A stretch of 64,000 nt of DNA. It comes from Caenorhabditis remanei. Its lineage: Eukaryota > Nematoda > Chromadorea > Rhabditida > Rhabditidae. The stretch spans positions 2,356,001 to 2,420,000 of the forward strand of contig NC_071332.1 in NCBI RefSeq assembly GCF_010183535.1. Direction: 5' to 3'. Shown in pieces: positions 14,501-61,700 of the stretch. Within the stretch, counting starts at the first letter, position 1; each line of letters begins with the position of its first letter. The notes beneath the pieces are model-generated. The model was not told the DNA's origin, ran no database searches, and worked only from the letters and a program-made list of their open reading frames with translations. The position numbers and the translations under genes are program-made.

Positions 14501-16198
14501 TTAGCCAATTTCGGTCAAATCTCAATCAGAAATTGAGTATTTTCTCATATTTTCTTATAAAAATCAGTTTTTTAGAATAAATACTCCTAAAAGCGAATCT
14601 TCACCCTGAAAATGCTCTAAATGGTCATAGCTGGCCGAACTTTCGTTTTTTGGGTTTCTAGGCCACGGGCAAAAGCTTTCGGTGGCCTAGAAACCCAAAA
14701 ATTCCTGTAAAAATACTCAAAATTCATTTTAAATATCGAATTTTCAGCTTGAAAATGTTTGAGTCAACAATGGCCGAACTTTTCATTTTTGTGTTTCTAG
14801 GCCAAGGGGAAGAAGTTTTGGTGGCCTGGAAACCCCAAAGTTCGGCCGACACTGACTTTTTTGAGCATTTTCGGGCTGAAAATTCGATTTTTAAGGGCGT
14901 TTTTGAGTATTATCAAATTTTCGCATTAGAGCGCATTTGCATTCGCCCCAAAAACCCACCTGATTAATGACATCCTTTCCGTAATGAGCATAAACGAGCC
15001 CAGCCGAACTCAATTTCGTATCGAAATTCAACTTTTCAAGTGTCCGCATCGTCTCGGTGAATCCGCGTTGATGATGATCGTATCGCTGTTTCGAATGATC
15101 AAAGACTCCGCCCACATCGACGACGATGTCGCATTTTTCCAGTTGAGACGCGTCACGGGTTCTGGAATTTTTAGACTGAAAATTGGGGGTTTTTGAGTGG
15201 AAAAATGGCAAAAATGAGGGATTTTCATCGAAAAAATGAAAATTTTCGCATTTTTTTTCATTGAAAATTGGTTTTTTGAGACTTTTAAATAGAAAATTAT
15301 CAGTTTTCCAATGATTTTTGTTGTAAAAATACACAAAAATGGGGTTTTGGATCAAAGAATCTGAAAAAACCGCTTTTCTCAAGATTCAAATGCAAAAACA
15401 TTGAAAATCGGCGGTTTTTTTTGTGGAAAAATGGGAAAACGAGAGATTTTCATCGAAAAAATGAAAAATTTCGTATATTTTTCCCTGAAAACTGGTTTTT
15501 TGAGACTTTTAAACAGAAAATTCTCAGTTTTCCAATGATTTTTGTTGTAAAAATTCTCAAAAATGCATACTTGCAAAATATCGGCCCGGCCCGGCTCGGC
15601 CCGTCGGCCGGGCCGGGCCGGTAGAGAAAGTTGCCGGCCCGGTCGGCCCGGAGTCAAAAAATGAGCAAAATTTTTTCACAAAATTTTTCGAAATTTTTAA
15701 AAATTTTCGTCAAAATAGTCTAAAATCCTATGTAAACTTGAGTTTTATCGATATGTAAAAACATAGTCGAAAATTCGACTTTTTTGCGAAAAAATCAAAA
15801 AATTTCAAATTTTTGTACTGTGACACGGGCCGACCGGGCCGGGCCGGGCCGGTGAAAATTCTCAAATCGGACCGGCCCGTTGCAAGTATGCAAAAATGGG
15901 TTTTCAGCTCAATAAATCTGAAAAAATACCAGTTTTTCGTTTCTCGCCATTTTTGAAGCTAGAAAATCCAAAAATCGCGAAAAAAAAATTTTTTTCAAAT
16001 GTTCTGACCAAAAAAGCCATTTTTCCACCCAAAATATGCTCAAAAATCACATTTTTCCCACTCAAAATCTCGGAATTTTCGCATTTTCTACCTCAAAATC
16101 GCGTGCTCTTTGAATTTCGGCAGTTGTTTCAACATGAAGCACGCGAATGCCTCATCACAATGGAATTTTCCAGAATGAGTGCCAATCAATGACGTCAT
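11595..16198 (-). CDS. MYG1/UPF0160 family exonuclease
   Basis: Four exons in phase: 16092-16198, 14960-15161, 13238-13685, 11595-11869; 343 residues, typical for the family. MYG1 proteins are DHH-like metal-dependent 3'-5' RNA exonucleases acting in mitochondria and nucleus. Seen: GTHSGKFHCDEAFA (6-19), the metal site DVGGVFDHSKQRYDHHQRGF (51-70), SAGLVYAHYGKDVI, and a C-terminal GGVFVHISGFIGGN followed by a Lys-rich tail. The ATG lies 27 bases after an AATTTTCAG acceptor at 16225, so the mRNA is probably trans-spliced. Unlike human MYG1 there is no obvious long presequence. It sits between rde-1 and the RMD gene, all on the minus strand. Confidence 0.88.
12024..12168. mobile_element. Family A MITE in MYG1 intron 3
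   Basis: TATTAGCACGGCACACTTCT and its mirror GTACCGAGCTAATA bound the copy. The centre contains the GAGAAAAAGAGACATTTTTC block. The rest of this intron (11870-13237) is diverged AT-rich sequence with units around TCGGCCATGTGAGC. Confidence 0.7.
13027..13165. mobile_element. Family A MITE close to the MYG1 exon 3 donor
   Basis: Arms CTTCTTACAACCGCGCTC and GGTAGAGCGCAGTTGTAAG. It is followed by an extra half-arm (GTGCTCTACCGGAC, ACAGAGCGCATTTGC) that stops 40 bases short of the donor at 13237. The same tail follows the copy at 19833-19965, so the two probably share an ancestor. Confidence 0.7.
14620..14860. repeat. Two copies of the GGCCGAACTT / TTTCTAGGCCAC foldback
   Basis: Short palindromes of the form GGCCGAACTTT..GGGTTTCTAGGCCACGG mirrored by GTGGCCTAGAAACCC. 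Same family at 25055-25510, 32130-32175, 33590-33650, 33740-33785, 45070-45115 and 58595-58670. Confidence 0.65.
15566..15890. mobile_element. hAT-like GGCC element in MYG1 intron 1
   Basis: Ends CATACTTGCAA and GCAAGTATG; exact 8-bp duplication CAAAAATG at 15558-15565 and 15891-15898. GGCCCGGCCC arms surround an AT-rich centre with GTCGAAAATTCGACTTTTTT. Confidence 0.8.
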
Positions 16199-16416
16199 TC
16201 TGAGGTTCAGAAGTCGTGAAATCACCTGAAAATTAGAAAAATGTGGGGAAACCAAAAAAAAATTGTTAAAATTTCAAAATATCAAAGAAAAAGCAACGAA
16301 AAAAATGAAGGGAAAACGAAAAACGGTGGAAAATGTGAAATGGAATCGATTTATAGTTTTATTACAAGAAAAACAAGAAAAAGAGGCGAAAAATCACAAA
16401 AAAATGGTGGGAAAAT

Positions 16417-17308
16417 CAGTGTGTGTTTTTCGAAATTTCTTATTCGAAAATATCTATTTTCGAAAAAAATTCGAATGATATTCGAATAATTTTTCGAATA
16501 TTCGTTCAAACAGTTGTTCGAAAATTTATTCGAACAATTATTCGAACGAATATTCGAACGAATATTCGAAAGACTATTCGAATATTCGTTCGAATATTCG
16601 TTCGAACATTTCTTTCGTTTGGTAAACTGGGCGCGGCATGTTCTTTCGGAGTGTCGTTTGCAGTTTGTTTTTCTTCATTGCGAAATAAATATTTATGATG
16701 AAGATATGTGTCAGCAGGGTTTGGGAAATTCCGGGCCGGGCCGACTGAAAAATTTTCCTCGGCCCGGCTCCTGTAGAAATTTGAATATTGTTGAAAACTT
16801 TTTGAAAATTTTTTTGATTTTTTGCAAAAAACGTCGAATTTTCTACTATTTTTTTGAAAACCGATAAAAACTGAAGCGTACAAGAATTTCGACTATTTTT
16901 TAATAAAAATTTTCAAAAAATTGTGAAAAAATTGTGCACATTTTTGAAGCCGGGCCCGGAATTTCCCAACCCTGTGTGTCAGAACTATTTCAAATGTTTT
17001 GAACAGTTCACATGAAAATTTATCCACAAAACTAGCAATTCTTGCGAAAATTTTCCGTCGGGAAACAATACGTTTTGAAAAACAGTAAAAATTTTCAAAT
17101 TTTATTAGAAACGATATTCGAAAATTGTTCGAATAAAATTGCCTTCGAATACTGTTCGAACAATTATTCGAATAGTTCGAATAATTATTCGAACATATTC
17201 GAAAAAGTATTCGAACAAAATATTCGAACAGTATTCGAAAAATGTTCGAATAATTATTCGAATAAATTTTCGAATAATTATTCGAACGTTGTCGAAAAAC
17301 ACACACTG
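16417..17308. mobile_element. hAT-like element built of ATTCGAA repeats
   Basis: Ends CAGTGTGTGTTTTTCGA and TCGAAAAACACACACTG, with an exact 8-bp duplication GGGAAAAT at 16409-16416 and 17309-17316. The interior is two arrays of TATTCGAA/ATTCGAAC (16440-16615, 17110-17295) separated by unique sequence that hosts another hAT-like insertion. It lies between the rde-1 and MYG1 genes. Confidence 0.82.
16715..16974. mobile_element. hAT-like CAGGGTT..GGGCC element nested in the ATTCGAA element
   Basis: Ends CAGGGTTTGGGAAATTCCGG and CCGGAATTTCCCAACCCTG with an exact 8-bp duplication TGTGTCAG (16707-16714, 16975-16982). The CAGGG start is typical of hAT. The centre resembles that of the CATACTTG elements, so these are two terminal types of one GGCC-rich group. 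Confidence 0.82.
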
Positions 17309-17546
17309 GGGAAAATGAGTGAAAAAGAGTGGAATGGGGGGAAATTTGTTCAACTATGCAAGTGCGCTCCAATGAACTACCCAATTTTTAAAATTCAATT
17401 TTTGCATTTTTTGGCAGAAAAAAAACCGTTTTTTCCGGGAAAAAAGCATAAAACGACCACAAAAAATACCGAAAAACATAAATCACAATGGAGCGCAAAT
17501 TCTAAACCAAAAATTTCAAATAAATACAAAAAAATACAGCAAAAAT

Positions 17547-20500
17547 TCAAGTAAATGACATTCCAGGGTAATCTCCATTAGTTTGCAAATATCTCTCGAT
17601 GACCTGACGACTCGGTGTTTTATTTTGAAGTCCCGGTATGATGTGTTCCTTGAAACTGCGATAGAGTTCTTTCGCTTTCTCACAGGAGAGATGAGCGTAG
17701 TGAACGGGCGCTGGTAGGGAGATGGGCTTACGGCAACGAGCGGACAGGAACGCCAATTCGTATGTCATTTTCTGGAAAATCAAGAGTTGGAAGTGTGAAA
17801 AAATGGGAAAAATATCTGAGAAAAACTTCATTTCGTTCATAGTTGTCAAGGCCCGCTCAGGCAACTCAATATCAATCTAATTAGACGCGGCATCAGTTAG
17901 ATTAGCTTGAATGTTGGCATGATTAGATTAATGCCGCGTCTAATTAGATTGATGAGCAATCTTGTAAGATTAATGCGCCGTCTCATTAGATTAGTGTGAA
18001 ATCTTGTGTAACTAGTCATAACATTTGAAAATTCTCTAGGTAAAAAAGAAATAGTAAATTTATTCAAATTAAAAACAAGATTTTTTACAATCGAAATGTA
18101 CAAAATATATAGAAAATAATACAGAAAATAAAAATTAGAAATTAGTAGAAAATCCATTGCAATGAAAGTGGAAAAAGTCCTAGTTGTTCTCTGTCCGGCT
18201 GCTGTCCATTGTCGTCCACTCAGCGAATTTTGCTGTAAAATGAACGAAATTACCAAAAACTGTTTGATTTCGGAACTCACAAAAGACTCTTTTTTTCGAA
18301 GCTTATGTAGAGAGCGCTGATGTTGAAGCAGTAGACGCTTATACCTGAGCAAAGAACTGTTATTCACGGCTCATTGAAAGCAAAACAATTTGCTTACCAA
18401 AGAATTTATTCATGATTTCATCGCAATGTTGACTTTTCTTTCAAACCAAATGGAAGTTGCGGAAGTGTGAAGACTGCAGTTGAAGACTTGAAGAGCCATA
18501 GAAACCGAAAAATACACTTTTTAATAATGGAAAATCGTGAAAAAGTCGATAAAACCGCAAACGACATTAGTTCGCAACGATTTCAGGCTTTCGAGACATA
18601 AATAGAAAATTAAAACTCAGAAAAAAACATTAAAATAAAAATTGAAAGTAATTTTGCGCGTTTTGTACTGACTTATTCTTGGATCCTTGGCGCGAACGAA
18701 GTTTGCGCAAGCAAAATCCACTAATCTAATTAGATTGTGATTAGATTGATGCGGTTGTAGGATTAGATTAATATTGAGTTGCCTGAGCGGCTGCAAAAAA
18801 TGACTCTTAATTTTCCAAATTTTTTCAATTTTTCATCGAAAAAGTGATCATTTTTGATTATTTTTCAGAATTTCTTCTAATTCTGAATGATAGTCGAAAA
18901 TTTGACTTTTTCGCGAAAAAATTTGAAAATTTTCAAAAATTTCCAAAAAAATTTTTTTTTGCGCCAATTTGCCGGGCCTTGACAACTATGATTTTGTTGC
19001 TTTCTCTTCGATATTATGAAATTTTATCCATTTTTACTCATTTTCCCACATTTTGCTCCCAACCGCTCCCAAACGCGAAAAATTGGATGTCTGGCGCGCC
19101 TTTGACGCGAGAAAATATTGAAATCGACCAATTTGCACTGGAATGGCTTCAAATTGCAGAAAACAAGTAGCTGGCGTGCCTTTGACGTGAAAATTTAGTT
19201 CAAAGTTGGCCAAAACTGACCAGAAATGCTCCAAAACGCGAAAAATTGGATGTCTGGCGTGCCTTTGACGCGAACAGTTTCAGGTGATGCCAAAATTCAA
19301 AGTGCACGCGTTTTTGAGGTAGAAAATGGAGAAAATTCGAGATTTTCAGTGGGAAAAATGGGGTTTTAACTTAAAAAAAAACGGCCAAAAATGCAGTTTT
19401 TATATAGAAAAAAGTAGAGAAAAACTCAGTTTTCAAAAAAAAATTCATGAAAAAGGAGATTTTGAAGATTTCGAAAATTATCGTGGTTTTCGGATCAAAA
19501 AATTTAAAATTTCGAAAAATCTCTGTGGAAAAATGTGATTTTTGGAATATTTTTTGGTGGAAAAGCTGAAAAATCAGAACATTTTCGATGAAAAAATTAG
19601 TTTTTAGAGCGAAAAACTTGAAAATGGAGCATTTCTGCATAAAATTTGAGAAATTCTGGGAAAAAATGAAAATCGGTATAAAAAACGGGGTTTCAACTCG
19701 CAAAACTACATTTTTTATAAATTTTTTCCAGAAAAGTTCAAGAAAATTCTCTTTTTCTCTGCGTCTCCCCATTCCCCAAACTATTTCTACAAATTTCGGT
19801 AGAGCGCGGTTGTAAAAACCGAGAGTTGCTCATATTAGCACGGCACAGCTCTTACAACCGCGCTTTACCGAAACCGAATAAAATTGTGAGAAAAATTGAG
19901 AGACTCAGAGAAAAAGAGACATTTTTCAAGGGCATTTCGGTAGAGCGCAGTTGTAAAAACGGTGAAAACGCGCTCTACCGGACTTCCTCTCTACAGAGCG
20001 CACTTGCTCTTTCTCTACATCAATGATAGAAAAATGATACCAAGCAGAGTTGCGCGGAAGTGATTTTTTCTAAAACGGAAGTCGGAAGTAAAATTTGTAA
20101 TCCGGAAGTCGGAAGCCGGAAGTAAAATTTTGAAGTGAAAAAACGGCCGGAAGTCGGAACTCGGAAGTCGGAAGTCGGAATTAGATTTTTTCGCAAAGAT
20201 TCAAAAACTCCTTGAAAAAGTTCATAAAATTCGCGAAAATCAGTGGAAAATTAGTTTTTGGCTGAAGAAAAACCTATTTTCTGTCTTTTTAGACCATTTG
20301 CCTTCTATTTCTGCGAGATGTACTTTTCCGAAATCCCACAATTATGGAATGACGGAAGTCGGAAGTAAAATTTTGAAAACGGAAGTCGGAAGTCGGAATT
20401 CCGCGCAACTATGATAGCAAGCTAATAGATTTCTAACGAAAATATGCATAAAAATGTCATTTTTTCGGCGAATTTTCACCATTTTTATAATTTTTCCTGA

Positions 20501-28594: not shown

Positions 28595-28599
28595 TATCG

Positions 28600-28928: not shown

Positions 28929-31142
28929 ATGGCTTTTCCCTTTGATATTTTCCATGCGGAAATCATTCGAACGGTGTTGGAAGGTGAAAAAGAACGATGT
29001 GCAGCTAAAGAGGAGTTTGGAACGGTAAAATAATTGATTTTTATTGGCTGAATACACCAGAAAAAGAATTTCAGATACTGGAAAACTTGAATGGACCGGC
29101 AGACATTGAAAAGTACGATGGATTGGTGCAGAAAGCGTTTCTTCATGTGAGAAAATTCAATTTTTAGAAAGAAAAAAAGAAAAAAATCGATAAATATCGG
29201 TTTTTCGTTTCTAGCGTGGAAAGAGCTGAAATTCCATCATTTTTCACCAAAAAATATTATATTTAGATTATAAGTCAGGATTTTCACTGAAATACTGAGA
29301 AAGTTAATTTTTCTGGTGAATTTTCAGAGAAAATGCCGAATTTTTTCCATCAAAATTGGGATTTTCGCCGTTGTTACTCCCGAAAACGCTTTTTTTTTCA
29401 TGAAAATCTCGTTTTTTCACGCTAGAATCGCATAAAACTGAGATTTTCGACAAAATTTTGATTTTTCCTCATAAAAAACTCAAAAAAACTCTAATTTTCT
29501 CCCAAAATCCACCTGAAAACCCAATTTTCTTCAAGGTCAACGCCGAAACCAAACTCGAATCGATCGGATTTCGAGTCGGACGACAATTAGTGGAGAAAGT
29601 GTCGAAAGAAGCGCCGAAACTTGTCACTGAGCTGGAGGTGAGTGGTTTTCACTCAAAAAATACTGAAAATTCGTATTTTTCCGAGGAAAATCAGTCTAAA
29701 ATGTTGAAAATTCGCATTTTTCAGAAGAAAATCAGTCAAAAAACTCTGAAAATTCGCATTTTTCCAAGGAAAATCAGTCTAAAACGCTGAAAATTTGTGT
29801 TTTTTCGACGAAATTCACTTAAAAACCCGAAAATTCGCATTTTTCAGGAGGAAAATCACCCTGAAAATGCTGAAAATTCATATTTTTCGACAAAAATCAG
29901 TCGAAAAACGTTGGAAATTCGTATTTTTTTGAGGAAAATCACTCAAAAAGCCGAAAATTCGATTTTTTCCGTGAAAAATCAGTCAAAAAACGCTGAAAAT
30001 TCGCATTTTTCCGTTAAAGATCTCTCTGAAAATACTGAACATTTGTATTTTTCCAAGGAAAATCACCCCAAAATGTTGAAAATTCGGATTTTTCCGACGA
30101 AAATCACTCTAAAATGCAGAAAATCCGCATTTTTCCGTGAAAAATCTCTCAAAAAACGCTGAAAATGCCTATTTTTCCGAGGGAAATTAGTCTAAAACTG
30201 CTAAAAAATTCGATTTTCAGCTGTTTTTCTGTCAAAATTCCCTTTTTTTCTCTTTCAGATCGTAAAATTCATTTGCAAAGATTTCTGGTCATCAGTTTTC
30301 GGCAAACAAGTCGACAATCTCCGTACAAATCATCAGGTATCACTTAATTTCACTTTTTCTTTCACTTTCACTCAAAAATATTAGCAGATCACTCCTTCTT
30401 ACAACTGCGCTCCACCGCAAACGAGAGAGTATCGACGAGAGAGAGAGACGCAGAGTTTTTGGACACAGATTTTCACAATTTTTGATCTATTTTCGCATTT
30501 TTTCATGACATTTTACACTAAATACTATGAAAAGATGCGAAAATAGGTCAAAAACTGTGAAAATCTGTGTCAAAAAACTCTGCGTCTCTCGCTTTTTTGC
30601 GGTGGAGCGCAGTTGTAAGAATGGTGGACTGCTAATACCATACTTGCAACGGGCCGGGCCGGGCCGATTTGAGAATTTTCACCGGCCCGGCCCGGCCCGG
30701 GTCACAGTACAAAAATTTGAGAATTTTTTTGATTTTTTCGCAAAAAAAGTCGACTATGTTTTTACATATCGATAAAACTCAAGTGTACATAGGATTTTTG
30801 ACTATTTTTAATGAAAATTTCAAAAAATTTCGAAAAATTTTGTGAAAAAATTGTGCTCATTTTTTGACTCCGTGCCGGGCCGGGCCGATATTTTGCAAGT
30901 ATGGCTAATACACAAATTTCACACATTTCCAGGGTGTCTACGTCGTGCAAGACGGTCGCTTCACGACGCTTCGAAGTTTTCCAGAAGGCGATCAATACGT
31001 GAAAGAGAGCGGCTATTTTCTCTCGTTTCCGTGTGGTTTACTGCGTGGAGCACTCGCCGGACTCAATATTCGAGCCATCGTGACGCCCACCATCGAGACG
31101 GTGCCATCTGTCAAATTTCATATCCAAATTCAACCGAAATAG
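28929..31142 (+). CDS. trpp-6: TRAPP complex subunit 6 (TRAPPC6/Trs33-like)
   Basis: Five exons in phase: 28929-29024, 29075-29146, 29536-29637, 30259-30336, 30933-31142; 185 residues. TRAPPC6 is a Bet3-fold subunit of the TRAPP tethering and Rab-GEF complex in ER-Golgi traffic. Seen: an N-terminal helix (EIIRTVLE), [36 protein letters not shown], and the C-terminal sheet [19 protein letters not shown], all family-typical. The acceptor of exon 3 is TTCTTCAAG rather than TTTCAG. It is head to head with rde-1, as I recall for the C. elegans neighbours, and converges with the transporter gene. Confidence 0.92.
29638..30258. repeat. Minisatellite in trpp-6 intron 3
   Basis: About ten copies of a 50-58 base unit with GAAAATTCGCATTTTTCCGA, then GGAAAATCAGTC, then AAAACGCTG. 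Diverged copies keep a near-constant period. Confidence 0.75.
30382..30642. mobile_element. Long-arm foldback of family A in trpp-6 intron 4
   Basis: CTTACAACTGCGCTCCACCG, GAGAGAGACGCAGAG and TTTTGATCTATTTTCGCATT are mirrored after a short loop near 30510. Its right edge GCTAATAC is the target site of the adjoining GGCC element. Confidence 0.8.
30639..30903. mobile_element. hAT-like GGCC element in trpp-6 intron 4
   Basis: Ends CATACTTGCAACGGGCCGGG and GCAAGTATG; exact duplication GCTAATAC at 30631-30638 and 30904-30911. Confidence 0.82.
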
Positions 31143-38204: not shown

Positions 38205-38403
38205 CAGAGTTGCGCGGAAGTGATTTTTTCTAAAACAGAAGTCGGAAGTAAAATTTTGAAAACGGAAGTCGAAAGCCGGAAGTCGGAAGTGAAAAAATGC
38301 CCGGAAGTCGGAAGTCGGAATTCCGCGCAACTCTGGTGCAGAGTTGCATGGAAGTGAAAATTTCTTATCCGGAAGTCGGAAGTCGGAATTCCATGCAACT
38401 CTG
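38205..38403. mobile_element. Pair of hAT-like GGAAGTCGG elements
   Basis: Two units, 38205-38335 (CAGAGTTGCGCGG to CCGCGCAACTCTG) and 38339-38403 (CAGAGTTGCATGG to CCATGCAACTCTG), lie back to back. GTAAGGTG occurs at 38192-38199 and 38404-38411; five extra bases precede the left end, so the duplication call is weaker than elsewhere. Confidence 0.6.
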
Positions 38404-41403: not shown

Positions 41404-44400
41404 ATGAACGGAAACTTTGACCAGTATATCAACAACTGTGATAATTTGGATGAACAGATTAGCGTCACCGACTTCATCAAGACTTTGAAGAAGGTAGGTC
41501 AAGTGCGCTCTATGTGCTTGTAGATCAAAAATAAAACTTCATTTTTGTAGTTGACAGTTTTTTGATATCTCTTCACGCTTTTGAGATATGCGCCTTTAAA
41601 GTTGATCGATTTTCCAAAAAAAAAATTTAATTGGTCAAGTTTGGAAGCTTGGCGTTGCTAATTGGATAATTGAACCTTTACAAATTTATAATGATCTTGT
41701 AGATCAAATCTAGCTCAATAATTTTGTAGTTGACAACTTTTTGATATCTCTTCACGCTTTTGAGATATGCGCCTTTAAAGAGCGGCGAGAGATGCAGGGA
41801 GGCTAGAGCGTCTGCGTCTCACCATCTTCAAACAGTTCTATCTCAAAAGTGGGCGGAGCTATCAAAATGTTGTCATTTACAAAAATAAAGCTCTTGATTT
41901 GATCTACATAACCAATATAAATATGTAGTAGTGCTATTCTACACTGAGCTCTCGAAGAGCCGCCAATTTTCGAAAAAAAAACTTTTTTTGAAAAATTGAA
42001 AATCGATCATCTTCGAATCGCTGTATCTCAAAAGTGGGCGGAGCTATCAAAAAGTTGTCAACTACAAAAATAAAGCTCTTGATTTGATCTACACAACCGT
42101 CTTATTTGTAAAAGTGTTCGACACCCCCTTCCCCCGCTACACCCTTCCAAAAAGGAAGTGTCTTCCAGGTCGAGTCATCCGACACTCTCAACGGTCGCGA
42201 CAGTACCTCGTCGAGCTCGTCAACCGACAAACTCGCGAAACTTCCAGAAGACGGACGTAAAGTCGACAAGAAGGGAAGTGCGAATGACTTGTTGCAAAAC
42301 ATGCGAAAGCGATTCGTTCATCGCGCCACCGAACCGATTTTCCACGCGTTGCCAGAGGCGCAGGTAAGCAGGTGTGTGCTCTATTTCCCCACTCGTATTA
42401 GTCAGTTTTGTTGTTTTTTTTTGTGTGTGACTCATATCTAGATGTGTCTGGAAAGAAATGTAGCTAAACGGGGGTGTGATTCATTGTATCCGGAAAATTT
42501 CAGTCGAATTCGATGAGTAAAACTAAAAGCTGTGTATCTCGGCTCATATTGACGCTAGAAAAGTTCTGAAAACTGATTCTGAATCCTCACGACGTCAGCT
42601 TTTCAAGACATATGACATCTTTACTATTAACAAACACCAGATTCTGTATGTTTGTCCGTATGTCGCCGATCCTACCGCCCTTCCTACTGAACCGATTTTC
42701 TTCAAATTTAGACCAAAATATCAGAAATTTTCTCTTAATGATGCCCGTCTTTTTCTTTTTTCAAAATTCTCAAAATTACGCCTTCTGAGCCAAAAACACT
42801 GATAAAGCATAGGGGAATGAAAAACGAAAAAAGTGGCGTGAAACTGTCGGCCTAAGCGTCGTCATTTCTTTCCTTTCTTCGGCTTGCATTTTCCGTGGCG
42901 GCATGGTTCGGGTTAACGTGTTGCCGCGTCCGATCTTGCAAGTTAAGCGTCGTTGACTTCAGTTAGTTTTAAGTTCGATCCCGGGTGACGAGAAAAGTTT
43001 TTTGATTTTTTGTTGATAGGTTCGGAAAAATAAAAGTTTGCGAACATGTTGTCTGTTGCCAAAAAAGGAATCAGACGTGAAAACGAGTCTAAAATGACCA
43101 TACTTGGAACGGGCCGGGCCGGGCCGGTACGAGAATTTCCACGGCCGGGCCCGGCCCGAGGCTCGGTCCATCCCGAAGGCCCGGCTGAAAAATTTTGAAT
43201 TTTTTTTCCCAAAAATGTCGAATTTTTGACTATACTTCAGAATTCAATCAAAAGATAGTTATGCATCAAAAAATTATTTTTAATGTAATATTTCAAAAAA
43301 ATTCAAAAAATTTGGTAAAAAATAGGTACCTTTTTTGAAGCCGTAAATTTGCAAGTATGAAAAAGACCAAACAAGCTCTAGACCGGCTTCAGTGACTTCC
43401 CGGGCAGAAACGTTCCCTTCGCGATTCCCGTCGTTTTTTTCAAGATTCTCAAAGTGATGTCTTCGGGGCAGAAACACTGATAAAGCATAAGGGAATAGGG
43501 GAATCGACAGCGAAAAAAGAAAGAGAGACGGCCGACAAAGTGGTGAATCGAGTGGTGAATCACTGGCAGCTGAACGATCGCCAACGGGCCAACGACCGTC
43601 TGTTACCGGTCAGCCAAAACAGTCAGAAAAACCACGAAAAAATGGATTTCTGAAATCCATCTTCAAAATCATTCGAAAGTCGACACTCCAGTGAGCTCTT
43701 CTTGGAGTAGCTGCTACTGATGCATAACCAGATCCTCATTACATCAAAAGGATGGATAAAGTTTGTTCATTTAACAAGACACTATATTTCAAAGCTTTGT
43801 TCGACTTTCAAATGATGAACTCGGGTGCGTTCAGGAATCCTTTCTGGCAAGTTAGGCAACATTGACTGTAGTTTGTTGGTTAGAACCCATGTGGGTACGT
43901 GAAAGATTTTTTCTTCGCAACAGATTTCAAAAAAATAGAGGATTGAGGAATCGAAATCGTATCAGAAGAGCAGAGATTTTACAATTATGCTTTACCAGAA
44001 CGGACTGCTTACAGCTAACAAAGACTACCAACAAGTTTAAAAAAAATACGATGCAGAAGTTGTAGAGAATTCTGAAACCTCTATAGTCTCAACCGTTTGG
44101 GAAGCGACGTGGGCGCTGTAACAACGAGAAGGGTGGTGTAGAAAAGGAGGTTTAGTCGCCGTTAGGCGACGTTAACCGACTGGTAATCTACTTTTATCAT
44201 AGAGGGCGGTGCTAAAAGTCAAGCTTTGCTCCAATTCACTGAGTAGCTCCCCTAGCTTCTCACCGTCGTGTCGAGGCCGATACACAGCTAAATCAACAAA
44301 AAAACGCGTCGTTTCGAATTTGGCGGGACTCGAAAGAACCATTTTAACGATAGAGCGCACTTTCTCACTAGGTAGGAACTACTGTAGAAAGGATCTCTAG

Positions 44401-46213
44401 TTGCTACCTAGTGAGGAAGTGCGCTCTACCGATGAAATAGTTTTTTCGAGTCCCCCCAAATTTGAAACGCCGTATTATCGAAATAAACAAGTTCCGACAT
44501 TTTTTCCTCGTCGGTGTTTGCGGACTCAAGCCAAAATTATCAAATTTTGGCTTGAGTCCGCAAACACCGAGGGGGAAAAAATGTCGGAACTTTTTTGTTG
44601 CGACAATACCTTTTTGTTGAGCCGGGTATCGCCCTCGGCACAACAGTAATAAGCTAGAGCTACTCAGCGAATTGGACCGAATTGGACCGCCCTTTGTGAT
44701 AAAACTAGATTCTATCATATTCCGATAAAGCTAACGTCATGAGGGCTCAGAATCTGTTTTCAGAACTTTTCTAACGTCAATATGAGCCTAGACACCAAGC
44801 TTTTATTTGAAGATGCACGGGTCGCTACTCAGCGAATGAGCCGAGATAGAACTGACTAAAACCCCCGTATCTCGGCTCATATTAACGCTAGACAAATTCT
44901 GAAATCAAATTCAGAATCTCCACGTCTTCAGCTTTCCAGTCATATAGAATTTTTAAAGAGGAATTTCGAGAATCTGAAATATATGTCAAAATGTGTTGAA
45001 AAATATGGGGATTAGTATCTAAAGCCCCCTAAAACCGAATTTTCACACTGAAAACGCTCTAAATTGTAAGTGCTGGCCGAACTTTTTGTGTTTGGGTTTC
45101 TAGGCCACGGATAGTAGTTCTGAGAGCATTTTCGGTGTGAAAATTCGGTTTTAGGTGGGTTTTTGAGTATTTTCATAAGAATGTCTATATTTTTGCATTT
45201 TTCCATACATTTTCCAAAATTCCCTGAAAACCCGTTTTCCAATATGCTTCATGACTGAAAGCTGAAGACGTGGCGATTCTGAATCTGGCTTCAGAATTTG
45301 TCTAGCGTCGAAAGCGACGGAGATACCGGGGTTTTAGTCTGATCTCTCCAAACTAACATGAAAACCACCCTCTGGTCGGTGGATTCCAGAAAATCATATC
45401 ATGAGGCCCAGGGCTACCAATGCAGACGCGCTCTATTGACAATAATGGTACACTTTTTGCGTCACAGTGAACATTCTAACTTATATACCCGGTATAGTAT
45501 GCAAATAAGTTAGAATATTCACCGTGACGCAAAAAATGAACCATTATTCTTAATAGAGCGCGGTTGCATTGGTAGCCCTGGGCTCATCGTGAAACCACCA
45601 TCTGGTCAGTGGATTCCACCGTACTTGCAAACCGGGCCGAAACGGGCCGGCGCGTAACTTGCGTCAAACTCAAAATTATGAGCTGAAAAATATACCAAAA
45701 TGTAGATCTCGGCGAGTTCTATGTCCGTGACCTACTACGGGCCGGATGGCTATTCGTTAATGTGCCGCGGGGCGGGAAAAAGTTCCAAAAACGCGAAAAT
45801 GACCAAAAAAGCCATTCTAGCCCGGCCCGCGGCACATTAACGAATAGCCATCCGGCTCGTAGTAGGTCACGGAGATAGAACTCGCCGAGATCTACATTTT
45901 GGTATATTTTTCAGCTCGTAAAACTCAGTTTGAAGCGAGTTACGTGTCGGCTCGTTTCGGCCCGATTTGCAAGTATGGATTCCACAGACTCATCTGACAA
46001 TAATAAAATTGTTTTCAGGAACGACGAGTCGTCAGCGGACGGGACGGCTCCTCCAGCTCCACCAAGAACTTCAGCCTCAGCCGGGAGCCGAAAAGCGTCG
46101 AAGGAGGATGCGACGACCTCGTAAAAATGCCGAGTTTCGACAACTCGCTGGACCGAAAGACTGATTCCGAACCGACGTTATCCAAAACATTGAAAAAGTA
46201 TAATACTCCATGA
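41404..46213 (+). CDS. Unrecognised small basic Ser-rich protein
   Basis: Three exons in phase 0: 41404-41493, 42169-42363, 46019-46213; 159 residues. I do not recognise it. Seen: an acidic start (MNGNFDQYINNCDNLDEQIS), a short helix-like VTDFIKTLKK, a Ser run (STSSSSSTDKL), a basic segment LLQNMRKRFVHRATEPIF, another Ser tract, and KTDSEPTLSKTLKKYNTP at the end. The second LKK segment echoes the first. The ATG follows a TTTCCAG acceptor by about 20 bases; AATAAA at 46279 supports the 3' end. Intron 2 is 3.65 kb of repeats. The last exon is also open in a second frame. Confidence 0.65.
41515..42105. repeat. Family E copies in intron 1 of the Ser-rich gene
   Basis: Fragments with CTTGTAGATCAAA, GTAGTTGACAACTTTTTGAT and TTTTGAGATATGCGCCTTTA, first forward (41515-41600, 41695-41780), then mirrored (41825-41915, 42005-42095), i.e. 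two foldbacks or one duplicated foldback. Confidence 0.65.
42364..43098. other. First part of the 3.65-kb intron 2 of the Ser-rich gene
   Basis: Contains CGGCTCATATTGACGCTAGA with TTCTGAATCCTCACGACGTC (42540-42600), shared with 39505-39560, 44750-44960 and 45240-45320; a run CACTGATAAAGCATA (42790) repeated at 43470; and a 5S-like relic. No coding signal. Confidence 0.45.
42911..42995 (+). pseudogene. 5S rRNA-like relic, copy 1
   Basis: CGTCCGATCTTGCAAGTTAA, then GCGTCGTTGACTTCAGTTAG, aligns with the central part of nematode 5S rRNA (from memory CCGATCTGGCAAGTTAAGCA then ACGTTGAG..CAGTTAGTA). The 3' third diverges and is followed by AAAAGTTTTTT, a Pol III-type terminator. It is too short and diverged to be a working gene. 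Confidence 0.6.
43099..43359. mobile_element. hAT-like GGCC element in intron 2 of the Ser-rich gene
   Basis: Ends CATACTTGGAACGGGCC and GCAAGTATG; flanks AAAATGAC (43091-43098) and AAAAAGAC (43360-43367), 7/8 match. Confidence 0.75.
43614..43690 (+). other. Candidate alternative internal exon of the Ser-rich gene
   Basis: Within a 67-codon open frame (43491-43691), GGTCAG|CC at 43613 and CA|GTGAGC at 43691 bound 77 bases encoding a Lys/Arg-rich segment (KPRKNGFLKSIFKIIRKSTL). Inclusion after exon 2 would shift exon 3 into its second open frame (QNDESSADGTAPPAPPRTSA..., stop at 46122). The polypyrimidine tract is poor. Hypothesis only. Confidence 0.25.
43840..43910 (+). pseudogene. 5S rRNA-like relic, copy 2
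   Basis: TCTGGCAAGTTAGGCAACAT, then TGACTGTAGTTTGTTGGT, matches the same 5S segment, and the downstream part (TAGAACCCATGTGGGTACG, then AAAGATTTTTT) matches copy 1 downstream. Two copies sharing a non-5S tail suggest a 5S-derived repeat rather than two decayed genes. Confidence 0.55.
44345..44645. repeat. Two adjacent palindromes in intron 2 of the Ser-rich gene
   Basis: First (44350-44432): GAGCGCACTTTCTCACTAGG mirrored by CCTAGTGAGGAAGTGCGCTC. Second (44470-44612): AACAAGTTCCGACATTTTTT and GTGTTTGCGGACTCAAGCCA mirrored around AAAATTATCAAATTTT. Confidence 0.75.
45405..45602. repeat. Long palindrome with TAGAGCGCG arms
   Basis: GAGGCCCAGGGCTACCAATG, CGCGCTCTATTGACAATAAT and GCGTCACAGTGAACATTCTA are mirrored around TATATACCCGGTATAGTA. 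The design matches the palindrome at 55083-55333 (CTATTGNNAA next to CGCGCTC, CGGTGAAC), so the two are related. Confidence 0.72.
45620..45977. mobile_element. hAT-like GGCC element with a foldback nested inside
   Basis: Ends CGTACTTGCAAACCGGGCC and GATTTGCAAGTATG; exact duplication GATTCCAC at 45612-45619 and 45978-45985. Its centre is occupied by a foldback with ATACCAAAATG arms (45650-45940). The element ends about 40 bases before exon 3 of the Ser-rich gene. Confidence 0.8.
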
Positions 46214-46278: not shown

Positions 46279-46284
46279 AATAAA
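46279..46284 (+). terminator. Poly(A) signal AATAAA of the Ser-rich gene
   Basis: AATAAATG lies 66 bases after the TGA at 46211-46213, preceded by a CT-rich stretch. Confidence 0.6.
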
Positions 46285-49900: not shown

Positions 49901-50020
49901 GTCACTTTTTGTGGTGAAATGTGAAAAAAGAGACTCCGCCCACCTATCCCCCTCCGAGCAACTTCATTCCATTCCTTCCCCTCCAATCGATAATCTGTGA
50001 TTCTTTCGGGTCTCTTCAAA
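46963..50020. other. Intergenic region upstream of uda-1
   Basis: Mostly AT-rich sequence without supported genes. 47700-47990 is less AT-rich and has ATGTTG|GTGAGT on the minus strand at 47941, but no partner exon was found. Family A copies at 49110-49245 and 49418-49548. The last 350 bases contain CTTCCTTACAG (49855-49865) and CCTCCAATCGATAATCTGTG before the uda-1 ATG. Confidence 0.5.
49110..49548. mobile_element. Two family A MITEs upstream of uda-1
   Basis: 49110-49245 (ATCACGGCACAGGTCTTACA to GCAGTTGTAAGAAGCG) and 49418-49548 (CTTACAACCGCACTCCACCG to GTAAGAAGCGTGCC). The segment between them repeats 46963-47120. Confidence 0.7.
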
Positions 50021-56000: not shown

Positions 56001-58356
56001 GATTAGAACTTCTGAAAATGGTTTTGGATCGATTTTTTCGTTTTTTTTTTAGAAAAAGATTCAAAAACCGCAGAAAAATCGTTCAAACAACAAAAAATGT
56101 CACAAACTTTTTGAAAATCTGACTTCAAGTTGTCCACGAGAAGTACACGGCGCTGTCGGCGTGTACTCCTCGTGGACAAGACGAAGTTTTAATTTTACTG
56201 GATTTTCTCCAGGTTTCCTGTAAATTTTTGAGTAGAACATCTGAAAATCGTCGAAAAATCCACTGAAATTTTCAAAATCTCAAATTCAACTTGTCCACGG
56301 CATAGTACAACTATGCCGTGTACTCCTCGTGGACAAGTTGAATTTGGGATTTTGAAAATTTCAGTGGATTTTTTACATTTTTTTTAGAAGTTCTCAAAAA
56401 TACACTGGAAAACTGCAGAAAATGTCATAAAAGTCCTTTTCATTTCAAAAATTTTGGTTCCTCTTGTTCACGTGGAGTACACGGGCAACAGCGTTGTGTA
56501 CTCCGCGTGGACAAGTTGACGTCGGATTTTTGAAAAGTTTGTGACTTTTTTTGTCGTTTTGACGATTTTTCTGCGATTTTTGAGTTTTTTTTCCTGAAAA
56601 AATTGATCCAAAACCACTTGAAATCAGTTCAGTTTTAAAATCTCTTATTCAACTTGTCCACCAGGAGTACACGCGGCCGCTTCTCAACAGAGCGCACTTT
56701 CATTATTTCCAATTTCCAGTGGTTCGTCGTCTCACTCGTTCTCCACATGCTACGACGTAACCAAAGCGTTCGTCGAATCGAGTGAAATAATGCATTTGCG
56801 AGAGCTGAAAGGCGCGCCAGTCTACCTGTTCTCCTATTTCTTCGATCGCGCTCTCAATAGTGGTCTCGTGAGCGGAAACGAGGGGGGACAAATTGAATTA
56901 CGGCAATTTAAACAGGCAGCCGAGGTGGCGTGCCGCCGTGGAAAGTCTGAAATTGAAGATGACGGAAGTCATTGGATGCCGTGGCAGTGTCTCGATTTGA
57001 CATATATTTATTCGTTGTTGAGAGACGGCTATCAGTTTGAGGATAGCCAGCCGATTGTGGTAAGGAAAAGGGGCCTATTTTTTGTGTTTTTGAAAAAAAA
57101 ATTGGAAAATTTTGGTCCCGAAATCACTGAGAAATCGTTGAAATTAGGTTTGGGACGTTTCAAAACCGGATATTTTTTCGGTTTCGAAATGTCCCGATTT
57201 TGAAACTTCTGGTACAAGATTTTGAGACGTTTTGCAACCTGGTCATTTCAAAACCGCCGGTTTCGAAACATCTCGGTTGCAAATCGAGCGCGTTTCAAAA
57301 CCGAGACACTTCAAACCCCCAAACGTTTTGAAACTATTACATTTCGATACCGGGAAACTTCAAAACCGGATATTTTTTGGTTTCGAAATGTCCCGGTTGC
57401 AAATCGTCTTGGTTTTGAAACTTCAGGAGGAAAGGTTTCGGGACGTTTTGAAACCGAGACATTTCGAAACCGAGACGTTTCGAAACCGCCTATTTTTTGG
57501 TCTCGAAATGTCCTGATTTTGAAATGTCAGGGATTCGAAACTTCTGGCAGAGCGGAAAGGTTTCGGGATGTTTCAAAACTGAGACCTTTCGAAATCAGGA
57601 TGTTTCAAAACGACATATTTTTCGGGTGAAAATTTTGAAAGTTTTGGTTCAGAAATTACTGAGAAATTGTTGAAATGGTGGTGGTTTTCATGAAAAAACT
57701 ATGAAAAAGTGGTCCGGGACGTTTTGAAACCATTACATTTCGATACCGGGAAACTTCAAAATCGGATATTTTTTGGTTTCGACAAGTCTCGGTTGCAAAT
57801 CGTCTTGGTTTTGAAACTTCTGGCGCAAGGGACGTTTTAAAACCGAGACATTTTGAAACCGCCTATTTTTCGGTTTCGAAACGTCTCGGTCCGGAACTTT
57901 TTGCTTCGGGACGTCTCAGAACCGAGACATTCCGAATTGTTGGTAATTTGTGGTGATTTTCGTGAAAAACAATGAAAAGGTGCTTTGAGACATTTTGCAA
58001 CCAGGGCATTTCGAAACCGAGACGCTTTGAAACTAGTCGTTTTGAAACCACTCGGTTCTAAACGTCTGGTTTCAAAACAACTTCCCTGACCCAAAACTTT
58101 TCAAAATTTCTCAAGTGCGCTCCACCGAACTCCCTCCAAATTCCAGCTCGCCAAAAAGATCAAAGGAATGGAAGTATCGTGGGGACAAGGTCTCGCGTTC
58201 GCCACCGCCAACGAGTTCCAACTAACCGAGGGAGCCATCAAAAGTGTGCTCAACTCCACCGCCGACCAGAATTCCACTGTCGTAGATCAAATTTTCGATC
58301 TGGTCTACTCGGGAACGAATCAAGTTCTTTCGTATTTTAATATTATTTCAGTTTAA
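50021..58356 (+). CDS. uda-1: UDA-1-like nucleoside diphosphatase (GDA1/CD39 family)
   Basis: Six exons in phase: 50021-50116, 51343-51483, 52462-52777, 55423-55756, 56720-57059, 58147-58356; 478 residues. The family hydrolyses UDP/GDP in the Golgi or ER lumen, allowing nucleotide-sugar antiport and glycosylation. All five apyrase conserved regions are visible: DAGSTGTR (44-51), ATAGLRLLP (123-131), SDEGVYSW (165-172), FDLGGGSTQ (202-210), and SWGQGLAFA near 420. The N-terminus (MLFPFIIFYIVGGSLTEAK) looks like a signal peptide and no C-terminal membrane segment follows, so a soluble lumenal or secreted enzyme is likely. Identification rests on family motifs and neighbourhood with rde-1. Introns carry an unusual load of palindromes and minisatellites. 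Confidence 0.92.
50378..50645. mobile_element. Two abutting family A MITEs in uda-1 intron 1
   Basis: 50378-50522 and 50522-50645 share the junction GAGCTATTAGCTTAGCCCGG. The second lacks its right end and runs into TTGACATTGTTTGGAG. Confidence 0.7.
50970..51230. mobile_element. Two family A MITEs inside a larger palindrome
   Basis: Copies at 50970-51098 and 51100-51230. The outer sequence AGCATAGTTATGGCATCTGC is mirrored by GCAGTTGCCATAACTATGC, so the pair as a whole is also an inverted repeat. It sits about 110 bases before exon 2. Confidence 0.7.
51965..52290. repeat. Family C palindrome and partial long-arm family A copy
   Basis: 51965-52035 holds TTTGAATTCCCGCCTAATCG with its mirror. 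52194-52290 holds only the left half of a long-arm foldback (CTTACAACTGCGCCCCACCG, ACGAGAGAGTATCG, GAGACGCAGAG). Confidence 0.65.
52778..53480. other. 5' part of uda-1 intron 3
   Basis: A degenerate direct repeat with GGTCTGGGGGT and GCGCTCCGC..GATCAGC at 52808-52870 and 52925-52985; the rest is AT-rich with TTTTATTTTAAAATT runs. No coding signal. Confidence 0.4.
53484..53622. mobile_element. Family A MITE in uda-1 intron 3
   Basis: CCTCGGCACAGTTCTCACAA to AAGAAGTGTGCCGTGCTAA. Confidence 0.72.
54248..54392. mobile_element. Family A MITE in uda-1 intron 3
   Basis: TATTAGCTCTGCACAGTTCT to CAGCGTGCCGTGCTAATA. Preceded by CTCAATATGAGATTATTGAG, a separate small palindrome (54220-54240). Confidence 0.72.
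54722..54832. mobile_element. Shortened family A MITE in uda-1 intron 3
   Basis: TTAGCTCGACACAGTTCTGA to GCGCGGTTGTAACAAGTGTG. The right arm lacks the CACACAATTTTCTTCGG block, so the two arms are unequal. Confidence 0.68.
54944..54996 (+). pseudogene. Truncated duplicate of the start of uda-1 exon 4
   Basis: TTCTAG followed by ACGAACCAACGATCGGTCAT repeats the true acceptor and first codons of exon 4 (TCCCAG, then ACGAACCAACGATTGGTCAT at 55423), 459 bases upstream. Spliced from exon 3 in phase it would read DEPTIGHNKP and stop. Upstream similarity (ATCTAAAAATTCT against ATCTGAAAATTCT) shows that the acceptor was copied too. Confidence 0.75.
55083..55333. repeat. Near-perfect 250-bp palindrome just before uda-1 exon 4
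   Basis: GTAGAGTCCCGAGACTAACC, ATGCGCTCTATTGCCAACGG and GTCGTAGCGGTGAACTTTAG are mirrored around an AT-rich loop that itself pairs (AATTTATT..AATAAATT). It separates the pseudo-exon from the true exon. Confidence 0.8.
55775..56685. repeat. Array of hairpins with GTCCACGAGGAGTACAC arms in uda-1 intron 4
   Basis: Five to six hairpins of the form CTTGTCCACG-GAGTACAC, 5-15 base loop, GTGTACTCCTCGTGGACAAG, centred near 55875, 56150, 56305 and 56485, with single arms at 55777 and 56655. Spacers of 110-220 bases share GATTTTCTGCAGTTTTCCTG. Loops differ while arms are conserved. Confidence 0.82.
57150..58085. repeat. GTTTCAAAACCGAGACATTTCGAAAC minisatellite in uda-1 intron 5
   Basis: Dozens of variants of TTTCGAAACCGAGAC and CGTTTTGAAAC in both orientations cover about 900 bases, with a longer block (CGTTTTGAAAC, CATTACATTTCGATACCGGG, AAACTTCAAAAYCGG) present twice (57325, 57720). 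The unit is internally self-complementary (TTTCGAAA). Confidence 0.78.
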
Positions 58357-58762
58357 CCGCTTTTTTTCTCTGAAATTGTGATTCCCCCCATTCCAATATT
58401 CTTTTCATGTCGGGTACCCGCTTAGTAACACACATCGATTCGAAATCCCCCCTCTCACTACGAGTTTTTCAATTTTTATCCATTTTTATGTCTTCTTTAT
58501 TATTGCCATGATTTCAAAATACATTCCTTTCTTTTTATTGTAATTTTACAACAAAAAAACTCGAAAATCCCCGAATTTTCAGCCTGAAAATGCTCATGGC
58601 CGAACTTTTTGGTTTTTGGGTTTCTAGGCCACTAGAAACCCAAAAACCAAAAAGTTCGGCCGCCATTGAGCATTTTCATTTCCAGGCTGAAAATTTTCGC
58701 TTTTTAATGGGTTTTTGAGTATTTTAAATTTCGAAAAATCGCACCCGCGCTCTACCGAAATC
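58357..58762. other. Convergent gap between uda-1 and the coiled-coil gene
   Basis: 406 bases between stop codons. 58595-58670 is a compact GGCCGAACTTTTTGG / CCAAAAAGTTCGGCC palindrome; 58745-58760 has CGCGCTCTACCG. No canonical AATAAA is apparent for either gene. Confidence 0.45.
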
Positions 58763-61700
58763 TCAAATCTCATTTATAACACAATAGGACTTTGGATGTT
58801 TCGGTGGAGCGACAAAACTGTACTCCTTTTCTGATGCATTTGCACAAATTCTTCGGAGTTCTGAGGTGGTTGGCACCTCCATTGAATCAATGGTCCTCTC
58901 CAGGTCTTTCAGCGTGGAATACGGTATTTCGTCGTCCTGAAATCGATAGTGGTGGCCTAGGATCCGACAACTCGGCCATCGAGGTATTTCGACGCGAAAA
59001 TGACCTCAGAACGCCATTTTCGCGTCGAAATATCACCATGGCCGAGTTGTCGGATTCTAGGCCACCACTACTTTTTACAAGCCTCAGATAACGTAGCCTA
59101 AAATCCGACAACTCTGCCATCAGCTGTAAATGAGTTCTACCGTAGTACTCGTTTCCAGCTGTAACATCATTTTCTCGTCGAAATATCACCATGGCCGAGT
59201 TGTCGGATTCTAGGCCACCACTACTTTTTACAAGCCTCGGGTAACAGTCGTGGCCTAGGATCCGACAAGTCGGTCATCGAGGTATTCCGACGCCAAAATG
59301 ACGTTCTGATGTCATTTTCGCGTCGAAATACCTCGATGGCCGAGTTGTCGGATTCTAGGCCACGTTACCTGAGGCTTATAAAAAGTAGTGGTGGCCTAGA
59401 ATCCGACAACTCGGCCATCTAGGTATTTCGACGCGAAAATGATGTTACAGCTGGAAACGTGTACTACGGTAGAACTCATTTACAGCTGATGGCAGAGTTG
59501 TCGGATCCTAGGCCACGACTTGTTACCTGAGGCTTATAAAAAGTAGTGGTGGCCTAGAATCCGACAACTCGGCCATCGAGGTATTCCGACGCGAAAATGA
59601 CCTCAGAACATCATTTTCGCGTCGGAATACCTCGATGGCCGAGTTGTCGGATCCTAGGCCACCTTACCTGATACTCATCCAGTGCTTCCATGAGATCACA
59701 CAACTTGTTCGCCACCTGACTAATCTTTCTCTGAATCACTCTCAGAAACAGTTTATCCACGTATCGATCGGTTAGTGTGAGAAGATTCTCGAATTCATAC
59801 GTCAACTTATCATACGCGATTTGCACGGTTTTTTGGAGGTGCAGGAGGGAGGTCTGGAAAATTTGAATTTGAAAAAATAACTTTTTGCAAACGCGATCTA
59901 TTGAGACTAAGCACAGGGGTTTTTGATCTACCTAAAAATTGAAATTTTCAATCAATACGACCACTCCCAAAAAAGTCTGAAATCAAATTTCATGAAAATA
60001 ATGAACAACTTTGGAGAAATGTCATGTAGCCACATATGGTCTGACATCAAATGTTTTGATATGGCTGTAAAGATCAAAGCTAGCGCAATATTTTTGTAGT
60101 TGGAAGTTTTTTGATAGCTCTTCACCCCGCTGAGATACGCGCCTTTGAAAATGGGCACATATGGCGGCGAGAGGGAGAGAGCGGGAGAGGCGCAGAGAAA
60201 CGAGCGCGTCTCGTTTCTCTGCGTCTCTTTGCCGCTTGTTTTAGGTAGTCAACTTTCAAGGCGCGTATCTCAGCTGGATGAAGAGCTATCAAGAAACTTC
60301 CAACTACAAAAATGTAGCCCTAGGTTTGATCTACACAACGATATTAAAATTTTTGTTGTCAGACCAAATTTGGCTAGTGGAGCGCACTTACCAAATTCTC
60401 TTCCTCGTCATTATACTTCCGATTATGATCGAAATCCAAAAAAGTCGTCTTCACCTTCACCACCGTCCCCCTCATCGTCTTCAACCAATCTCCCCATTCC
60501 TGTTCTTGCTCCTCCCACCGTATCCTCAACTTGATACAATTCAAGAACATCTGAATCCTTCTAGACGATTCCTTCCGGAACTGTCTCATGTCTTCCTCGG
60601 CTTCCCGATTCATTTGCTCTCGTTTTTCACGTACTTTACGCATTTCCTCGTTGAATCTCTCGTTTTGAGCGTCAAGTTTTCGACGGAAACTTGCGTCCGC
60701 CTCATTACAACGATTGGTAAAGTTCAAGGAGGAGGTGTTAGAGGAGAGACTGGGTGTTCTGGAATTTTTTTTTGATAAATTCTCTTTCTAGATTTCTTAC
60801 AACCCTTAGAACATGAAATATTAGTTCAAAAATCAAAATATTTTGAAAATATAGCCTAACTTTGAAGAGGTGTTTTGGGACCAAATTTGGTCTGACAACA
60901 AAAATTTTAATATCGTTGTGTAGATCAAACCTAGGGCTACATTTTTGCAATTGAAAGTTTTTTGATAGCTCTTCACCCCTCTGAGATACGCGCCTTAAAA
61001 GTTGACTACCTAAAACAAGCGGCAGAGAGACGCAGAGAAACGAGTCGCGCGCGCTTCTCTGCGTCTCCCCCAGCTCTCTCCCTCTCGCCGCCATATGTGC
61101 TCATCTTCAAAGACGCGTATCTCGGCGGGGTGAATAGCTATCAAAAAACTTTCAACTACAAAAATATAGCGCTAGTTTTGATCTACACAATGATATTAAA
61201 TTTTTTCAGACTTGTCACGGGCCGGGCCGGGCCGGGCCGGGCCGGGCCGAAATCAGAGAAAAATCTCGGCCCGGCCCGGCCCGGCCCGGCCCGGCCCGGC
61301 CCGGCCCGGCCCGGCCCGGGGGCCCGGCCCGCTCGGCCCGTTTTGAAACATTTTTTCAAAAAATTTCTTGTTTTTCAACTTTTTTTTGGAAATTTTTTGA
61401 AATTTTTTGAAAAAAGTATAGTTTTTGAATAAACATTTAAAATTGAATCAAAATGTGAATATGTATGATAATCAAAGCATTTTTACTCTTTTTTTTCGAA
61501 AAATTTCAAAAAAAAATTGGTAAAAATGGTTACCCATTTTTGAATCCGGGCCGACCGGGCCGGGCCGGGCCAAGAGAAATTTCGGCCCGGCCCGGCCCGG
61601 CCAAGAAAAATCTCGGCCCGGCCCGGCCCGGCCCGGCCCGGGGGCCCGGCCCGGGCCGGCCCGATTTTTGACAAGTCTGAATTTTTTGATGTCAGACCAC

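What the first reader, a model, noticed from the sequence alone, without database searches (positions are those of the whole stretch)
15558..61687. GGGCCGGGCC arrays throughout the window are one hAT-like family with 8-bp target duplications
Seven GGCC-rich copies have inverted ends CA(T/G)ACTTG (or CAGGGTT) and flanking 8-mers: CCGGAAAG, CAAAAATG, TGTGTCAG, GCTAATAC, GATTCCAC and AATTTTTT exact, AAAATGAC/AAAAAGAC 7 of 8. Chance cannot give this repeatedly. Such arrays are normally masked as simple repeats, so the family may be undescribed. Arms are extremely GC-rich in an otherwise AT-rich genome.
Basis: partly seen in the sequence, partly recalled or inferred. Interest (0 to 1): 0.78.

Follow-up and report, generated by a model that had tools for sequence, protein, structure and literature searches.

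The report
GGGCC-armed hAT MITEs in Caenorhabditis remanei
The GC-rich GGGCC arrays in this worm genome are not simple repeats but the arms of small jumping elements (hAT MITEs), and larger copies with the same ends carry a matching transposase gene.

Summary
All 46 GGGCCGGGCC hits in the window lie inside eight elements with inverted ends; six have exact 8-bp flanking duplications, two have 7 of 8. The host is Caenorhabditis remanei: three database proteins lie on contigs with exactly the lengths of C1, C2 and C3. Of 34 array sites listed on C1, 28 were tested assuming only CA..TG tips: 25 have exact 8-bp duplications (other lengths 0 to 5 of 28; chimeric control 7 of 280), two of the 25 with foreign ends. 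The other six, found by their ends, all have them. Three larger elements (2.9 to 4.0 kb) have the same ends and arrays and encode related hAT transposases; the C1 protein's family has Hermes homology and fold. 'One family' is too simple: at least four end types share the arrays, of the order of 2,500 copies. I infer, but did not show, that GGGCC units are subterminal binding sites for the transposase's N-terminal zinc finger. The kind is known; whether the family is in Repbase or Dfam could not be checked.

The parts
2423..2601 (.). MITE, 179 bp, CATACTTGTCAC...TTGACAAGTATG, TSD CCGGAAAG at both sides, 66% GC
   Evidence: first unit at 13 and 18 from the two tips
15566..15890 (.). MITE, 325 bp, CATACTTGCAAA...GTTGCAAGTATG, TSD CAAAAATG
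16715..16974 (.). MITE of the CAGGGTT type, 260 bp, CAGGGTTTGGGA...TTCCCAACCCTG, TSD TGTGTCAG
   Evidence: related genome-wide ends CAGGGTTGGGAAAT, 126 forward and 125 reverse, control 0
17838..18990 (.). Three ORFs of 60 aa or more overlap it (not searched against families); no PF05699 match was listed in the window
30639..30903 (.). MITE, 265 bp, CATACTTGCAAC...TTTGCAAGTATG, TSD GCTAATAC
43099..43359 (.). MITE, 261 bp, CATACTTGGAAC...TTTGCAAGTATG, flanks AAAATGAC/AAAAAGAC (7 of 8)
45620..45977 (.). MITE, 358 bp, CGTACTTGCAAACCGGGCC...GGCCCGATTTGCAAGTATG, TSD GATTCCAC; first unit at 15 from both tips
61207..61679 (.). MITE, 473 bp, CAGACTTGTCAC...TTGACAAGTCTG, TSD AATTTTTT; of the window copies the one whose ends match transposase-bearing elements best
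   Evidence: 82 bp at 96% (C4 element) and 106 bp at 94% (C5 element) to their 3' ends, 50 bp at 94 and 96% to their 5' ends; only 28, 25 and 13 of those bases lie outside GC runs

Best explanation
The arrays are subterminal arms of non-autonomous hAT transposons (MITEs) moved by a small set of Hermes-fold hAT transposases in the same genome. Shown: inverted ends, 8-bp target duplications, high copy number, and larger elements with the same ends and arrays that encode the transposase. Inferred: cut and paste by the hAT pathway. The transposase's N-terminal CCHH/C finger would bind the GGGCC units (5-bp period, laid out differently at the two ends) to find and tell apart the ends, while the catalytic core cuts at CA/TG; short copies keep ends and arrays and so are moved in trans. 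I give 0.93 to 'hAT elements moved by these transposases' and about 0.5 to 'GGGCC units are the finger's binding sites'.
Against: No binding or mobility data. Two of the 25 duplications belong to foreign ends (L083 CAGAGATG, L097 CAGTGTGT), the L085 pair (CATAGTTGTACGGA) may be an enclosing element too, and three loci gave no pair. Pfam BED was not matched at E up to 1, so the finger rests on a motif and on a model with block pLDDT 57 to 68 for residues 41-70. The solved Hermes BED domain reads AAG(T/C), and the paper says the earlier GTGGC assignment should be reevaluated (PMC10368747); AAGT also lies in the CAAGTATG/CAAGTCTG tips here. The 13/18 layout is not universal: among 85 CATACTTG ends listed, 42 have the first GGGCC at 15. 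Only 6 of 61 copies with a hit share 60 or more bases outside GC runs with a transposase-bearing element, none of them in the window. Tip comparison gave matches only for the 3' tips of C4/C5 and C4/C1; none for the 5' tips (the C4 5' tip was mis-cut) or L015. Flanks of three transposase remnants on C3 gave no complete element; one has a CATACTTG end with a single unit.
Confidence: 0.9

Rival explanations
1. The arrays are microsatellites that grow by slippage; inverted ends and duplications nearby are coincidence.
For: The longest pure pentamer run varies from 1 to 10 units between collected copies, so slippage or unequal exchange may change array length.
Against: 25 of 28 array loci have an exact 8-bp duplication beside inverted ends against 7 of 280 in chimeric controls; 46 of 46 window hits lie inside elements.
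Confidence: 0.02
2. hAT elements as described, but the GGGCC arrays are not transposase binding sites: they are tolerated or selected for another reason (hairpin formation, a host factor, avoidance of silencing), and the finger reads the AAGT-like tip as in Hermes.
For: The Hermes BED site is AAG(T/C) and CAAGTATG/CAAGTCTG tips contain AAGT. Within 130 bases of the tip, 41 of 60 CATACTTG-type and 27 of 30 CAGACTTG-type ends begin with GGGCC and also hold facing GGCCC units that could form a hairpin (folding was not computed).
Against: CATAGTTG and CAGGGTTG tips lack AAGT yet keep the pentamers. Arrays follow the transposase clade: 8 of 9 relatives, 0 of 21 others.
Confidence: 0.4
3. Another superfamily with 8-bp duplications (P, Merlin) moves the elements.
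For: An 8-bp duplication alone is not unique to hAT (recalled).
Confidence: 0.02

Closest known systems
Hermes (hAT superfamily, housefly)
   Same: Transposase fold and profile homology, 8-bp target sites, subterminal repeats arranged differently at the two ends (PMC10368747: section 8 and search passages seen; not the whole text).
   Different: Hermes subterminal sites are dispersed AAG(T/C); here they are tandem GGGCC pentamers, often facing each other within one end, in an AT-rich genome.
hAT MITEs such as mar in Drosophila (PMC3517528; search listing and start of abstract only)
   Same: Short non-coding hAT derivatives with inverted ends.
   Different: No GGGCC arrays are mentioned in what I saw; the paper was not opened.
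CERP2 and CELE2 MITEs of Caenorhabditis (PMC9757741; search passages seen)
   Same: Caenorhabditis MITEs with motif-bearing inverted repeats.
   Different: Their m1/m2 motifs are tied to HIM-17, a THAP protein; the words hAT and remanei occur 0 times in the text.

Membership tests
hAT superfamily | 8-bp target site duplication | tested here: met
   25 of 28 loci exact, other lengths 0 to 5 of 28; 23 of 30 exact. The C4 element has a 9-bp repeat CATCGGGAC.
hAT superfamily | DDE transposase with RNase H fold of the Hermes type | tested here: met
   Profile hit to Hermes E 1.5e-9; fold matches; aspartates at P0001 positions 180 (13 of 13 members with a letter) and 247 (14 of 14); that these are catalytic is inferred, and the third acidic residue was not located.
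hAT superfamily | C-terminal hAT dimerisation domain PF05699 | tested here: met
   3 of 3 proteins above cut-off: models of the C5 and C1 elements and the L015 ORF; the C4 element by genome search; 10 of 15 relatives at E up to 1.
hAT superfamily | N-terminal BED zinc finger (CCHH or CCHC) | tested here: inconclusive
   C46, C49 and H64 in 13 of 13, H60 and C69 in 12 of 13 members that cover the site, but no Pfam BED match at E up to 1 and middling confidence in the model there.
hAT superfamily | Short inverted ends near the consensus (C/T)A(A/G)NG (recalled, not a strict rule) | tested here: inconclusive
   CAGGG fits; CAGAC and CATAG depart at one position, CATAC at two.
MITE | Short, non-coding, inverted ends, duplications, high copy number | tested here: met
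   Median length 328 bp, range 154 to 1153, among collected copies under 1300 bp; thousands of ends. Absence of coding was not tested copy by copy.
MITE derived from these autonomous elements | Sequence shared with a transposase-bearing element beyond tips and arrays | tested here: inconclusive
   6 of 61 copies with a hit share 60 or more bases outside GC runs (4 with the C1 element, 1 with C4, 1 with L015); the rest less.
Entry in Repbase or Dfam | Matching consensus in a repeat library | not testable with these tools
   No such library on hand.

The most novel reading that the evidence does not exclude
A Caenorhabditis hAT clade uses a tandem GC pentamer as a modular, countable transposase landing array. 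The array and its unequal offset from the two tips are kept while tip sequence and transposase diverge, so MITE families compete through array length and layout, and repeat maskers hide them as simple repeats.
Probability: 0.4. Interest if true: 0.55.

Novelty: new member of a known kind. Interest (0 to 1): 0.42.

Why it matters
Arrays likely to be masked as low-complexity sequence turn out to be arms of an element group of the order of 2,500 copies in a relative of a model nematode, with transposase genes located. It offers a natural series (varying unit number, spacing and tip sequence against diverged transposases) for asking what hAT transposases need at their ends beyond the inverted tips.

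Tried and rejected
Microsatellite explanation: rejected by the duplication test. A first version of that test without composition filters was useless, chimeric control 45 of 84; the filters (CA..TG tips, no GC-array words as duplications) were added after seeing that. AlphaFold2 with 3 sequences gave pLDDT 36 and was not used; the 15-sequence model (75.5) was. phmmer of one gene model against the PDB found nothing; the profile found Hermes. Pattern CAGGGTT with a fixed 12-base spacer found nothing; the spacing was a wrong guess. The CAGGGTT-type transposase locus (L015 plus L074) showed only a 3' end; no right end was found in the stretch held. L025/L030 gave no paired ends. Flanks of three transposase loci on C3 (L103 to L107) gave no complete element. 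The splice search gave a poor model for the C4 element (386 aa, lacking the finger) and faulty 3' ends, so the C4 protein was not used as a query. The viral structure library was not searched. Literature: seven searches; no title or abstract start in their listings describes these arrays. The string GGGCCGGGCC is counted 0 times in the 15 papers shown of 4,182, GGGCC 0 times in the 10 shown of 127. PMC10015627 (passages) gives hobo-Activator only as a class in a table; PMC12132450 (passages) names MITE tools only. This is no proof of absence from print.

Full report
WHAT WAS CLAIMED AND WHETHER IT IS THERE. GGGCCGGGCC occurs 46 times in the window against 0.04 expected, and 46 of 46 lie within eight elements. 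Six of eight have exact 8-bp flanks, two have 7 of 8. Random 8-mer pairs from the window match exactly at 0.00012.

HOST. The window lies in a 130,466,896-base assembly of 186 contigs. Proteins GCK72_000487, GCK72_004691 and GCK72_008469 of Caenorhabditis remanei lie on contigs of 17,247,545, 19,935,723 and 17,877,849 bases, the lengths of C1, C2 and C3. I take this as strain PX506; the link of that strain to this assembly is recalled.

GENOME-WIDE TEST. Strict ends CATACTTGNNACGGGCCGGGCC: 586, reversed control 0. Of the first 30 loci, chosen by that one intact end, 23 have an exact 8-bp duplication, 3 (L048, L051, L064) one mismatch, 2 (L057, L059) a poor pair and 2 (L053, L066) none. The test that assumes only CA..TG tips used the 34 array clusters that I made out on the plus strand of C1 up to 2.58 Mb in the first 100 places. 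Of these, 28 were fetched afresh; the other 6 were already held as L039, L042, L044, L045, L049 and L050, all with exact duplications by the end-based method. Of the 28, 25 have an exact 8-bp duplication next to inverted CA..TG ends (at most one mismatch in 8); lengths 5, 6 and 7 give 2, 5 and 2, lengths 9 to 12 none; chimeras of unrelated halves give 7 of 280. Ends among the 25: CAGACTTG 10, CATAGTTG 7, CATACTTG 3, CAGGGTTG 3, CAGAGATG 1, CAGTGTGT 1. The last two, and one of the CATAGTTG rows (L085, CATAGTTGTACGGA), may be other elements that merely enclose an array; L085 and L083 also hold inner CATAC-type copies. L075, L078 and L091 gave nothing.

COPY NUMBER. Forward matches, which the listings show once per end, are 1434 (CATACTTG), 653 (CAGACTTG), 334 (CATAGTTG) and 126 (CAGGGTTGGGAAAT), together 2547. 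Reverse counts of the variable-gap patterns are inflated by overlapping matches. As each intact copy gives one forward end, I estimate of the order of 2,500 copies; degraded ends are missed.

TARGETS. The 58 distinct exact duplications have AT-rich middles; T at position 1 occurs in 3 of 58 and A at position 8 in 2 of 58. No Hermes-like nTnnnnAn pattern stands out.

TRANSPOSASE PARTNERS. PF05699 has 33 matches in the genome. Three loci extend to complete elements with the same ends: C1:3608139-3612102 (3964 bp, TSD CTTTTTTC), C5:18773824-18777626 (3803 bp, TSD AAATAAAG) and C4:4798998-4801916 (2919 bp, flanked by CATCGGGAC on both sides). The C5 locus recurs at L027 (99.97% over 3189 bp) and in part at L028 (99.95% over 1966 bp). 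A fourth locus (L015) has a CAGGGTT end with arrays and only the 3' part of a related transposase. Of 30 dimer-domain loci held, 9 match P0001 by tblastn; 8 of these 9 hold a GGGCC cluster and 0 of the other 21 do (Fisher p 1.5e-6; not independent, since L026 to L028 and L025/L030 are duplicates; L016 is the relative without a cluster in the stretch held). P0001 (CRE_09701) matches the C1 element exon by exon at 65 to 98% and is 99% identical to GCK72_000487, which I take to be this gene; both are named as hAT dimerisation-domain proteins. Relatives found here that bear an organism name are all Caenorhabditis; two of the 14 rows are unnamed. Only 7992 candidates were scored in that search.

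LAYOUT OF THE ARMS. Successive GGCC cores within 130 bases of a tip are most often 5 bp apart: 426 of the 750 spacings shown (my sum; its list was cut at 25 values). In CATACTTG and CAGACTTG copies the end-most unit mostly reads GGGCC inward and is followed by units of the other orientation. The first unit lies 13 bases from one tip and 18 from the other in 40 of 65 collected copies, a set partly selected for spacing 13. In listings not so selected: CAGACTTG ends 13 in 27 and 18 in 34 of 63; CATACTTG ends 15 in 42, 18 in 15, 13 in 14 and 14 in 8 of 85. So 13/18 is one common layout, not a law. In the three transposase-bearing elements 18 is at the gene's 5' side and 13 at its 3' side. The C4 and C5 elements, 77% identical over a 91-residue catalytic stretch, share 46 bp without mismatch from base 4 of the 3' tip; the C1 element, 53 to 54% identical in that stretch, still shares 27 of 29 bp with the C4 element at the 3' tip. 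No such match was reported for the 5' tips (the C4 one was mis-cut) or for L015.

MECHANISM. Shown: ends, duplications, copy number, transposase partners and fold. Inferred: cut-and-paste by the hAT route and movement of short copies in trans. Proposed: GGGCC units serve as subterminal binding sites of the finger. The analogy is Hermes, whose BED domains bind subterminal AAG(T/C) repeats placed asymmetrically at the two ends; that paper reports BED contacts at the left end and none at the right (PMC10368747, passages and section 8). The DNA motif differs, and AAGT is present in the CAAGTATG and CAAGTCTG tips here, so the rival that the arrays do something else keeps 0.4.

NOVELTY. hAT MITEs with subterminal repeats are a known kind. 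The GC pentamer array in an AT-rich nematode is unusual, and I saw no description in the listings of seven literature searches, but repeat libraries were not available. I file it as a new member of a known kind.

Noticed in passing
window 20045-20413 and 38205-38335: Two copies of another hAT-like MITE without GGGCC: left end CAGAGTTGCGCGGAAGTGAT, flanks 7 of 8; a similar element with CAGAGTTGAGCGGAATTCCGC ends and exact flanks lies to the right of the C4 transposase element.
   Followed up: partly
L092 586-1229: A 644-bp CAGACTTG copy in which array hits recur at 237-base steps, as if an internal unit were repeated in tandem.
   Followed up: no
L026, L027, L028 (C5:18776653, 18830342, 18853212): Dimer-domain loci within 80 kb that are 99.9% identical over 3189 bp (L026/L027) and 1966 bp (L026/L028), probably segmental copies.
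   Followed up: partly
C4:4798998-4801916: The transposase-bearing element is flanked by a 9-base repeat, not 8.
   Followed up: no
window 183-364: A lone CATACTTG followed by scattered GGGCC/GGCCC at 280, 310 and 364 may be a decayed copy.
   Followed up: no
window 1919-2418: Tandem AATTTACCGGTA-type repeats right beside the 2423 copy, whose duplication CCGGAAAG resembles them.
   Followed up: no
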